A stretch of DNA of 5,814 bases, taken from contig JBDREC010000020.1 of the NCBI GenBank assembly GCA_043820105.1, positions 1-5,814 on the forward strand, read 5' to 3'. The position numbers were made by a program, and so were the translations under genes. Under the pieces are notes generated by a model that was not told the DNA's origin, made no database searches, and saw nothing but the letters and a program-made list of their open reading frames with translations. Source of the DNA: JBDREC01 sp043820105 [NCBI: Pseudomonadota bacterium] (GTDB lineage Bacteria; Bdellovibrionota_F; JAHFAK01). Below are positions 926 to 4,973 of the stretch, piece after piece (the stretch's first letter is position 1; every line of letters begins with the position of its first letter).

Positions 926-950
926 ATGTTAGACGTCCGACGTCTAACAT
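926..950. repeat. Left palindrome of the transposase element
   Basis: The arm ATGTTAGACGTC (926-937) and its reverse complement GACGTCTAACAT (939-950) flank a single central C at 938. Two further A-T pairs (924-925 with 951-952) extend the arms to 14 bp. Each arm ends in the self-complementary hexamer GACGTC, so the centre is two GACGTC sites one base apart. The right flank touches the TAA stop of the transposase. The long stem would form a strong hairpin in RNA or single-stranded DNA, but there is no adequate T-run for a standard terminator. Confidence 0.92.
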
Positions 951-1638
951 TTACTCTATAAGAAGATCTTGAATTAACGATTCTTTTAACTGAAGTTTTG
1001 CAGTGCTAGTTTTTATAAATTTATAATACTCATTAATACCGGAAAATTGATCAAGAATGATGTCCGGTTTTAAAAGTTTTCCCCAGCGATTATTTTTAGC
1101 AAAATCTTGATAGCTTGACCAAGGATAATTTATTTCTTTATTTTCCCATTGTTTTAATTCTCTTGGGTTGCGATGAATGTATGCTGAAAGATAAAGAAGT
1201 TGTTCGTTTGTTTCTACGCGTATCGCTCGAAAAGAACCTTGAAAAAGATGTCCCCTTTTTTTATATTTTGCGTTAAAGTATTTTGCATAGCCAGTTTGTA
1301 TCCGCTGAAGATAACGGGAAATACCATTGCCGTCATCAGTTTTTTCTTGAGTTAAAAGATGAAAATGGTTTGGCATAATAGTAAACGAATTTAATTCTGT
1401 AATTCTTTTGGCGATAATTTGGCGTACTATCTCTTCTGGCATATTAAATCGCGAATGCTTGAGAAAATAGGAACTCTGGCGGCTAATATTATAAAAAGAC
1501 AATGGAGCTTGGTATACAAGGATAAAAAAAAAGAAAACGGCTATAATCTCTTTCATCAAGAAAGATTGGAGTTTCGTTGTTGCTACGATTACAGATATGA
1601 TAATAATTATTTTGCGCAAACTTAAATTTCCTTATCAT
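951..1638 (-). CDS. REP-associated-type Y1 (HUH) transposase, interrupted by a one-base frameshift
   Basis: Two minus-strand frames together encode one protein. From the ATG at 1638, the first frame starts MIRKFKFAQNNYYHICNRSN and continues through IFLDERDYSRFL, the typical amino terminus of this transposase family, but it stops at 1491-1489 after 49 residues. The next frame carries the rest, to a TAA at 951-953. The frames join across a run of nine T on the coding strand (A at 1524-1532). Removing one T gives a continuous 228-residue protein. In that reconstruction the HUH metal-binding motif is MPNHFHLL (H91, H93), followed by KKRGHLFQGSF near 126-136 and YIHRNP near 153-158. Y153 is the likely catalytic tyrosine by comparison with E. 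coli REP-associated transposase. A TTG at 1619 in the second frame is an unlikely start because the residues after it are meaningless for the family. Whether this is a pseudogene, a sequencing error or slippage-dependent expression cannot be told from the sequence. Confidence 0.85.
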
Positions 1639-1652
1639 AATTATAACCTAAC

Positions 1653-1677
1653 ATGTTAGACGTCGGACGTCTAACAT
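1653..1677. repeat. Right palindrome of the transposase element
   Basis: The arm ATGTTAGACGTC (1653-1664), a central G at 1665 and the arm GACGTCTAACAT (1666-1677) form a perfect 12-bp-arm palindrome. It is identical to the reverse complement of the left copy, differing on the same strand only in the central base (G here, C there). The flanking bases do not pair, so the stem stays at 12 bp. It ends 11 bases before the DnaA-box-like 9-mer and about 20 bases before the -35 element of the greA promoter. It could therefore act as an upstream boundary for that transcription unit. Confidence 0.92.
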
Positions 1678-1687
1678 CGTCAATAGT

Positions 1688-3685: not shown

Positions 3686-4973
3686 TAAATTCATTAGAGA
3701 AAATTTAGAGAAGGTAAAGGATGCTTGTAAAAAGAAACAGGTTGATCTTGATATTGATAAATTATTGAATGTAGATAAAAAAAGACTAGGGCTGTTGCAA
3801 GCCCTTGAAGACATGAGAGCTCAAAAAAACAAAGCTAGTAAAGAAATTCAAAAGGCTAAAGATAAAGAAGAAAAAGAGATGATAATTTTAAAAATGCGGG
3901 AATTAGATACAAATTCAGATAGGGTCGCCGGTGATTTCAAAAAAATAGATGCAGAATTTAAAGAATTAATGTTGCAGGTTCCAAATATTATTTCTAAAGA
4001 TGTGCCAGTTGGTCCTGATTCAAAATCGAATAAAGAGATTAATAAATGGGGGAATATCCCAAAGTTTAATTTTAAAATTAAAGATCATATTAAATTAGGG
4101 AAAGAGTTAAATATTATTGATACTGAAGCTGGTGCGAAGACCGGAGGCTTTAGAGGATATTATCTTAAAAATGAGGCTGTTTTTTTACACTTAGCTTTGA
4201 TGTGGTACACCATAAATAAAATGAGGGAAAGAGAATTCGAACTATTTGTGCCGCCTACCCTTATTCGCGAATTTACCTTAATTGGCAGTGGTCATTTTCC
4301 AGCTGGCCGGGAAGAGGTATTCCATATAGGAAACCAAGGAAAGATTGAAAGCGAGGAAACAGCCAAAGAGCCTCTTTTTCTGGCTGGCACTGCTGAGCCG
4401 TCTTTATTGGCCTATTATGCTGATAAAATTTTAGATGAAAATGAATTGCCAATTAAAGCTTGTGGCATCTCTCAATGTTACAGATCAGAAATTGGCAGTT
4501 ACGGCAAAGATACTAAAGGATTGTATCGTGTTCACGAATTTATGAAAGTTGAACAAATAGTAATTTGCAAGGCTGATTTAAAGGAAGCAGAAAAATGGCA
4601 CGAAGAAATGCTGAAGATTGCCCGAGAAATATTGAAAGATTTAAAGTTGCCTCATCGGGTGGTGATTAATTCTAGTGGTGATATGGGTGTTGGTAAGTAT
4701 AAAATGTATGATATTGAAACCTGGATGCCATCTAGGAATGACTATGGTGAAACCCATTCTGATTCTAATATGACAGATTGGCAAACAAGAAGATTGAATA
4801 TTCGCTATCGTGAAAATGGCAGTAAAACTAAGTTTGCTTACGCTTTGAATAATACCGTTATTGCCAGCCCGAGAATTTTAATTGCAGTTTTAGAGAACTA
4901 TCAACAGAAAGACGGCAGTATTAAGGTTCCTAAAGTTTTGCAAAAATATACAGGATTTAAAAAGATAGGTTAA
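3675..4973 (+). CDS. serS: Seryl-tRNA synthetase, class II
   Basis: The 432-residue cytosolic enzyme charges tRNA-Ser with serine. Residues 1-105 form the long antiparallel coiled coil that grips the tRNA-Ser variable arm (rich in K and E, ending LMLQVPNIISKDVPVG). Then come the serine and ATP site elements: GTAEPSL near 238-244, motif 2 as QCYRSEIGSYGKDTKGLYRV near 267-286 followed by HEFMKVEQ, YDIETWMPSRNDYGETHSDS near 345-364, and motif 3 as LNNTVIASPRILIAVLENYQ near 391-410 with the conserved R400. The ending DGSIKVPKVLQKYTG is typical. I start at 3675 because MLDIKFIREN is the canonical SerRS beginning; the TTG at 3663 only adds four residues. No Shine-Dalgarno precedes it, and the same start context is duplicated 49 bases upstream. 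The next gene begins two bases after the stop codon, so the two are very likely co-transcribed. Confidence 0.97.
   Translation: MLDIKFIRENLEKVKDACKKKQVDLDIDKLLNVDKKRLGLLQALEDMRAQKNKASKEIQKAKDKEEKEMIILKMRELDTNSDRVAGDFKKIDAEFKELMLQVPNIISKDVPVGPDSKSNKEINKWGNIPKFNFKIKDHIKLGKELNIIDTEAGAKTGGFRGYYLKNEAVFLHLALMWYTINKMREREFELFVPPTLIREFTLIGSGHFPAGREEVFHIGNQGKIESEETAKEPLFLAGTAEPSLLAYYADKILDENELPIKACGISQCYRSEIGSYGKDTKGLYRVHEFMKVEQIVICKADLKEAEKWHEEMLKIAREILKDLKLPHRVVINSSGDMGVGKYKMYDIETWMPSRNDYGETHSDSNMTDWQTRRLNIRYRENGSKTKFAYALNNTVIASPRILIAVLENYQQKDGSIKVPKVLQKYTGFKKIG

What the first reader, a model, noticed from the sequence alone, without database searches (positions are those of the whole stretch)
926..1677. 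Transposase bracketed by two reverse-complementary 25-bp palindromes
Each end is itself a 12-bp-arm palindrome, and the two copies are exact reverse complements that differ only in the central base. This is consistent with hairpin substrates for a Y1 transposase, as in REP-associated transposase systems or IS200 ends. It differs from the textbook GTAG-plus-imperfect-hairpin REP, because the hairpins are nearly perfect and no GTAG tetranucleotide flanks them. It may represent a CPR-specific element type.
Basis: partly seen in the sequence, partly recalled or inferred. Interest (0 to 1): 0.6.

Follow-up and report, generated by a model that had tools for sequence, protein, structure and literature searches.

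The report
Transposase with matching gene-invading palindromes
A small transposase gene in an uncultured ultra-small bacterium is flanked by two copies of a 25-base palindrome; in related genomes such palindromes, each kind matched to its own transposase, also sit in frame inside essential genes, which makes it testable how short palindromes invade proteins.

Summary
In detail: two 25-bp palindromes (12-bp arms) flank a Y1 transposase gene, which in the window is frame-shifted at a homopolymer. The enzyme is a HuH/Y1 protein whose predicted fold is closest to a REP-associated transposase bound to its REP hairpin (4er8), but it scores below the REP-transposase family cut-off and no GTAG flanks the palindromes. 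The layout is common in related CPR genomes: 90 of 140 distinct transposase ORFs have matched palindromes (both ends and/or internal) against 5 of 427 control ORFs. Each gene tends to have its own palindrome. For four other palindromes 52 of 63 copies lie in genomes with the cognate gene; for the window's own type only 41 of 89 do. Many solo copies sit in frame inside housekeeping genes (argS, murC, murD, trmD, rsmA, ileS, mpg and others). At the same gene site other genomes often carry a different palindrome (12 of 31, against 6 of 246 control windows). Best reading: a GTAG-less REPtron-like system whose hairpins spread as tiny non-autonomous elements, like Rickettsia protein-coding palindromes but with a candidate enzyme. 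Movement is inferred, not shown. New variant of a known kind.

The parts
926..950 (.). palindrome at the 3' end of the transposase gene (12-bp arms, centre C; 14-bp arms over 924-952), directly after the stop codon
951..1640 (-). Y1 (HuH) transposase gene, TnpAREP-like; C-terminal frame 951-1619, N-terminal part in another frame from an ATG at about 1638
   Evidence: PF01797 E 6.9e-10; NF047646 41.6 bits, cut-off 80; frames; relatives intact
1524..1532 (.). A9 homopolymer where the reading frame shifts; A8 in relative G073
1653..1677 (.). palindrome at the 5' end of the transposase gene (centre G), 14 nt upstream of the start codon
1678..1681 (.). CGTC between the palindrome and flank homologous to G002; element or flank undecided; marks the greA-side boundary

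Best explanation
A REPtron-like unit. A TnpAREP-like HuH/Y1 enzyme works on single-stranded hairpins formed by its own family of perfect palindromes, one at each end of the gene and, in many relatives, one in frame inside the gene. Hairpin copies spread through the genome as tiny non-autonomous elements of about 25 bp, between genes and, where frame and protein loop allow, inside genes. Enzyme and palindrome change together, so each transposase lineage has its own palindrome. Shown: anatomy, matching palindromes per gene, paired stem changes, a genome-level link for several palindrome types, in-frame sites in essential genes, different palindromes at the same site. Inferred: single-strand cleavage and transfer, strand choice, and that the enzyme moved the solo copies. 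In the window the gene is probably broken (or the extra base is an assembly error).
For: Matched 5'-3' pair in 69, matched internal copy in 49, either in 90 of 140 transposase ORFs; control 5 of 427 pairs, 0 internal. In a sample not chosen by palindrome: 19 of 35 against 1 of 46. Ten window-clade palindromes: 97.5% of stem cells paired, two-sided changes at 4 of 12 pairs, slid controls 22-47%. Leaving out the TTAGACGTC type, 17 of 198 solo palindromes in fetched loci match a transposase of their own genome; permutation mean 1.3, maximum 8, 0 of 5000 reach 17. Whole-genome counts of four other palindromes in 27 genomes: 52 of 63 copies in genomes with the cognate gene. Fold: best PDB match 4er8, E 1.8e-6, target TM 0.67.
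Against: No movement was observed. For the window's own type only 41 of 89 copies are in genomes with a detected cognate gene (7 of 18 genomes). 50 of 140 transposase ORFs show no matched palindrome, and 3 of the 49 internal copies (660-744 nt before the stop) are more likely 5' copies in ORFs extended upstream. Copy numbers of 1-11 per genome are far below the more than 100 given for classical REPs (abstract in listing). At least one solo copy (L050) looks like the end of a decayed element. The four other palindromes were picked after solo copies had been seen, so their counts are not blind.
Confidence: 0.68

Rival explanations
1. The same loops of the same genes are hit again and again by independent insertions, because only there is a small in-frame insert tolerated; no exchange of palindromes happens.
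For: Sites are length-variable loops (recG, ileS, rsmA). Di Nocera 2013 reports different REPs at about the same recB site in two Xanthomonas species (PMC3733652 section 15).
Against: At the murC site palindromes of different sequence lie in the same register without gaps in G002, G001 and G097 (G143 has an imperfect one). Internal transposase copies cluster at clade-typical places (32 of 46 in three clusters) although the palindrome differs.
Confidence: 0.5
2. An ordinary IS200-type insertion sequence with perfect subterminal hairpins; solo palindromes are scars of lost copies.
For: Some IS200-group elements have perfect palindromic ends (PMC8266576 section 29); L050 looks like an element remnant.
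Against: Y---N motif invariant in 24 of 24 hand-picked relatives, as in class 2 of Quentin 2018 and unlike the Y---Q of IS200; no near-identical copies within a genome (best 26-75%, 24 genomes); many solo palindromes are clean in-frame inserts in genes.
Confidence: 0.1
3. The palindromes are regulatory or terminator hairpins, or operators of an autoregulated gene, not transposition substrates.
For: In the window one lies 14 nt before the start codon and one right after the stop codon.
Against: In-frame copies inside unrelated housekeeping genes and inside the transposase gene.
Confidence: 0.12
4. DNA uptake sequences or another genome-wide signal.
For: Short repeat shared between related CPR genomes.
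Against: Only 1-11 copies per genome; sequence differs from transposase to transposase. That uptake signals are far more numerous is recalled.
Confidence: 0.03

Closest known systems
REPtron: REP-associated tyrosine transposase (RAYT/TnpAREP) with REP hairpins
   Same: HuH/Y1 enzyme with class 2 Y---N motif, gene bordered by palindromes, solo palindromes in the genome, enzyme and palindrome co-vary; one REP group has perfect palindromes (PMC8266576 abstract)
   Different: No GTAG/GTGG foot; below the NF047646 cut-off; few copies; often in genes
TIRtron / TIRYT (Di Nocera 2013; Quentin subclass 2.1)
   Same: Class 2 Y1 protein of similar length, flanked by repeats without GTAG, some self-complementary, some present elsewhere in the genome
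   Different: Here near-perfect palindromes in many families, in-frame internal copies, solo copies inside genes; no GGGGWSAS motif seen in the window's palindromes
TnpAREP subclass 2.4 with REPs inside the gene (Quentin 2018)
   Same: Palindrome inserted in frame in the transposase gene itself
   Different: Internal copy often before the HuH motif rather than between HuH and Y; FQ and Y-IHRNP motifs closer to subclass 2.1
Rickettsia palindromic elements (RPE) and CGTC REPs
   Same: Palindromes in frame inside conserved genes, including tRNA ligases and DNA repair genes
   Different: RPEs first described are about 105-150 bp; CGTC repeats were found to lack a dedicated transposase; here about 25 bp with a matched Y1 gene
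IS200/IS605
   Same: Y1 HuH fold, hairpins near both ends; ISDra2 and IS608 follow in the fold search
   Different: Y---N instead of Y---Q, no near-identical copies, no tnpB beside the window gene

Membership tests
REPtron / RAYT (TnpAREP) | Y1 HuH protein with class 2 Y---N(P) motif | tested here: met
   HuH, Y153 and N157 invariant in 24 of 24 hand-picked relatives; motif class from Quentin 2018 Table 1
REPtron / RAYT (TnpAREP) | Score above the curated family cut-off (NF047646, 80 bits) | tested here: not met
   27.0-45.2 bits in 6 of 6 proteins
REPtron / RAYT (TnpAREP) | GT[AG]G tetranucleotide at the foot of the hairpin | tested here: not met
   absent next to both window palindromes; not scored in the other families
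REPtron / RAYT (TnpAREP) | Gene flanked by its own palindrome family with dispersed copies | tested here: met
   weak for TTAGACGTC, 41 of 89 copies
REPtron / RAYT (TnpAREP) | Cuts its own ssDNA hairpin | not testable with these tools
   needs purified protein
TIRtron / TIRYT | Class 2 Y1 gene flanked by terminal inverted repeats without GTAG | tested here: met
   window and relatives; definition
TIRtron / TIRYT | GGGGWSAS motif in the repeats (most, not all, TIRtrons) | tested here: not met
   not in the window palindromes
TIRtron / TIRYT | C-terminal HTH domain of subclass 2.1 | not tested
   only PF01797 was reported by Pfam; no dedicated search
IS200/IS605 | Y---Q motif (subclass 1.1) | tested here: not met
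   Y---N in 24 of 24
IS200/IS605 | Near-identical copies within a genome | tested here: not met
   best pair 26-75% in each of 24 genomes
Rickettsia-type protein-coding palindromes | In-frame insertion of palindromes in unrelated genes | tested here: met
   10 of 14 scanned TTAGACGTC host ORFs named, plus glyS, pcm, dnaG for two other palindrome types
Rickettsia-type protein-coding palindromes | Sequence family shared with Rickettsia RPEs | not tested
   no RPE sequence was compared

The most novel reading that the evidence does not exclude
The transposase exchanges one palindrome for another in place: old hairpins inside essential genes are replaced by the hairpin of the resident enzyme, so loops of housekeeping proteins are rewritten in step with the mobile gene and without loss of frame. 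This would be a new mode of concerted evolution and a mechanism for Rickettsia-type protein-coding palindromes.
Probability: 0.28. Interest if true: 0.87.

Novelty: new variant of a known kind. Interest (0 to 1): 0.7.

Why it matters
Palindromes inserted in frame in proteins have been known from Rickettsia since 2000; a 2007 review says movement by transposases had no experimental support (PMC2229807, passages), and CGTC-type repeats were reported to lack a dedicated transposase (PMC3733652 abstract). Here in-frame palindromes come with a matched candidate enzyme, in a lineage where many palindrome and enzyme types coexist, so the question of how they spread can be tested directly. It also bears on how very small genomes tolerate inserts in essential enzymes.

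Tried and rejected
Empty pyrH-greA site: not found; in the seven relatives looked at (G001, G002, G073, G097, G132, G143, G154) a gene with a penicillin-binding transpeptidase domain (two of them checked with Pfam) lies upstream of greA. Literature: no paper holds the palindrome core; searches joining CPR names with REP, RAYT or palindrome terms listed no paper on this system (only the first 20 of 153 were listed). Absence from print is claimed for these searches of an open-licence library only. PDB sequence search with the L015 protein: no hit at E 1. The first own-versus-cross test (34 of 246 solo palindromes against 15.4 expected) is biased, because loci had been fetched by the TTAGACGTC pattern; it was replaced, which leaves that type out. 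The likeness of the CGTC foot to CGTC REPs was not pursued.

Limits. Detection needs perfect arms of 7 or more, so worn palindromes (L028, L247) count as misses. Of 145 PF01797 matches in 28 genomes five were not fetched (four of G019, one of G008); the 140 ORFs include the window's, two of Aminicenantes and some fragments. In one search three of the five positive controls lie in viral contigs and one beside a transposase. Searches looked at 46 loci (26 given by the tool for best-scoring matches, 20 I chose from the printed list); they gave 38 transposase ORFs, 35 of 195 aa or more. Five of these 35 score under 120 bits and none of the five has matched palindromes. The tree used 131 of 140 ORFs; branch support was not read. 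The 24 proteins and the ten palindromes were picked by hand. Six control windows reach arm 8; I did not check whether they hold real elements; rows are related, so the Fisher p (5e-9) is only a guide.

Full report
What is in the window. Two 25-bp near-perfect palindromes at 926-950 and 1653-1677 flank a minus-strand Y1_Tnp gene. The gene runs from an ATG at about 1638 to the stop at 951-953, but its frame changes at an A9 run (1524-1532). G073 (locus L160), the closest transposase found, is 89% identical in DNA over 724 columns, has A8 there and an open frame. The 5' palindrome lies 14 nt before the start codon, the 3' one directly after the stop. Both fold as ssDNA hairpins.

Ends. In G001, G002, G097, G132, G143 and G154 greA follows a penicillin-binding-protein gene with a spacer of about 53-79 bp, and in G073 a transposase element lies between such a gene and greA. 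The window's greA-side flank is alike to the G002 spacer up to AATAG at 1682, so there the element ends at the palindrome, give or take the bases CGTC. The pyrH side stays open. The transposase is 89% identical between window and G073, greA-lysS 70%, and both copies lie upstream of greA but at different distances (about 10 and 97 bp from the shared promoter-like stretch). This fits transfer or fresh insertion better than joint descent, but does not prove it.

Where the palindrome occurs. An exact scan of the genome collection (84,980 species) for TTAGACGTCNGACGTCTAA gave 55 stretches: 50 with titles naming CPR lineages, 4 from untitled bacteria that the tools group with these genomes, and 1 in an Aminicenantes tandem repeat. 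Pattern length alone predicts about 4 (own arithmetic, equal base frequencies). The viral collection gave 4 stretches. In the 19 genomes behind these loci the counts with up to 2 mismatches are 1-11; the reversed-pattern control is 0 in 19 of 19. Of the 62 CPR copies in the stretches 14 belong to transposase elements and 48 are solo (counted); one of these, L050, is followed by a remnant alike to the transposase start.

The layout is general. From 145 PF01797 matches in 28 genomes and the window, 140 distinct transposase ORFs were examined. With perfect arms of 7 or more, 69 have a matched palindrome pair at 5' and 3', 49 a matched internal copy, 90 either. Control ORFs in the same loci: 5 of 427 pairs, 0 internal. 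In genomes not chosen by palindrome, 19 of 35 transposase ORFs of 195 aa or more are positive, 1 of 46 controls. Palindromes differ from gene to gene. Of 46 internal copies in the tree set 32 fall in three clusters before the stop (about 181-186, 438-446 and 511-528 nt), each typical of one part of the tree, although the palindrome differs within it; three (659, 718, 744 nt) are more likely 5' copies. I read this as old in-frame insertions whose stem changed in all copies together.

Stem constraint. Ten flanking palindromes of five window-clade elements (window, L015, L026, G073, G027) form standard pairs in 97.5% of cells, with two-sided changes at 4 of 12 pairs; sliding one arm gives 22-47%. 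G073 and G027 were found by DNA similarity, the others through the palindrome. G027 has the same two-sided change in both of its palindromes.

Cognate link. Four other palindromes were counted in 27 genomes; they were picked after solo copies had been seen. CTTGGCGTCC: 6 copies, all in G005 (4 in the element, 1 in mpg, 1 in dnaG). CTTGGGAAC-NNN-GTTCCCAAG: 7 in G004 (3 in its element) and 6 over five other genomes, 5 of the 6 with another loop. ATACACCGGTT: 7 in G001 and 10 in G027, both with a cognate gene, 3 imperfect in G002. CTTGGGTGTC: 8, 5 and 9 in G003, G006 and G018, all with a cognate gene, 1 each in G010 and G011. Together 52 of 63. Without the TTAGACGTC type, 17 of 198 solo palindromes in the fetched loci match a transposase of their own genome; permutation mean 1.3, maximum 8 of 5000 runs. 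Against this, for TTAGACGTC itself a cognate gene was detected in only 7 of the 18 CPR genomes, holding 41 of 89 copies; G010 (11 copies), G013 (7), G011 (6), G004 (5) and G007 (4) have none. Missing contigs, lost genes or mere shared descent could each explain that.

Inside genes. 25 of the 48 solo copies lie in open frames of 170 codons or more. Of 14 host ORFs of this type scanned, ten were named: argS, a GT4 glycosyltransferase, mpg, rsmA, trmD, recG, murD, murC, ileS and elp3; four (L017, L019, L037, L043) had no hit. The GT4 hit and the cut-off recG ORF are below the NCBIfam cut-offs but above Pfam's. Copies of two other palindrome types lie in glyS, dnaG and pcm (pcm below its NCBIfam cut-off). 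Typical peptides are LRR[PR]TSK, VRR[PR]TSN and LDV[RG]RLS. Orthologues without the insert keep both flanks, for example trmD in G263 and recG in G163, G073, G132 and G002. In transposase L044 the peptide (residues 61-67) lies in a coil before the HuH strand.

Turnover. At nine gene sites 41 orthologous rows were aligned. Ten carry the TTAGACGTC type. Of the other 31, 12 have a different perfect palindrome of arm 8 or more, against 6 of 246 windows elsewhere in the same stretches. At the murC site G002, G001 and G097 carry three unrelated palindromes in one register, G143 an imperfect one, G027 another with extra bases, and G163 a loop of the same length without palindrome. Four of the 12 (mpg in G005 and G004, murD in G006, murC in G027) match a transposase of their own genome; the other eight do not match one that I found. 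Repeated landing in tolerant loops and exchange in place remain open.

Enzyme. HuH residues, the tyrosine and the N four residues on are invariant in 24 of 24 hand-picked proteins. The AlphaFold model of the L015 protein (pLDDT 83) is closest to 4er8, a REP-associated transposase bound to a REP hairpin (E 1.8e-6, 14% identity, the only match under 0.001); ISDra2 and IS608 follow. NF047646 (REP-associated tyrosine transposase) scores 27-45 bits, cut-off 80. By the motif table of Quentin et al. 2018 (abstract, section 12 and part 1 of section 15 read) NHFH, FQ and YIHRNP come nearest to subclass 2.1, where no REP-like sequences were found and which those authors link to TIRYTs. I made this assignment by eye.

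Known ground. Di Nocera et al. 2013 (abstract, sections 15 and 16, passages) describe TIRtrons with partly self-complementary repeats, REPs inside genes, and different REPs at about the same recB site in two species. Corneloup et al. 2021 (abstract, part 1 of the discussion, section 29) report REPs with perfect palindromes and co-evolution of enzyme and REP. Rickettsia elements were seen through passages of two reviews. Hence a new variant of a known kind. What is added here is a CPR system that joins a GTAG-less Y1 transposase, its own perfect palindromes, in-frame internal copies, and in-gene solo copies that differ between species at the same site.

Noticed in passing
L001:5072-5869, L003:692-1828, L004:4760-5569 (viral contigs): ORFs flanked on both sides by TTAGACGT-T/C-A-ACGTCTAA-like palindromes (control list), without a transposase found there; possibly a CPR-phage relative of the repeat.
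   Followed up: no
window 1678-1681; left of L015 palindrome 3979-4003; L160 about 1120-1185 and 1908-1960: CGTC (or GACG on the other strand) next to the palindrome, and half-arm repeats outside it in G073; recalls the CGTC-tagged REP class, but only in some copies.
   Followed up: partly
L027:5383-5801 (G001): Near a tRNA-like stretch several different palindromes lie within about 300 bp, one of them the ATACACCGGTT type whose transposase is in the same genome.
   Followed up: no
L160:888-2053 (G073): The flank right of the transposase resembles the end of a penicillin-binding-protein gene, while another such gene end stands left of it; perhaps a duplication or a disrupted gene end.
   Followed up: no
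L092:1143-1919 (G001): A different transposase with another palindrome lies directly downstream of greA in G001, so the greA region carries unrelated elements in different genomes.
   Followed up: no
G027 C1, C3, C13: Four copies of a variant ATACACCGGTG-C/G-CACCGGTGTAT with changes on both arms beside the main type in the same genome, as if a new subfamily were spreading.
   Followed up: no
L249 (G004 rsmA), L198 (G154 ileS): Other in-gene palindromes, CCCCCTTTCCCCTT-ACG-AAGGGGAAAGGGGG-like and CCTGCCTGCCGGCCAGGCAGG, with no transposase assigned.
   Followed up: no
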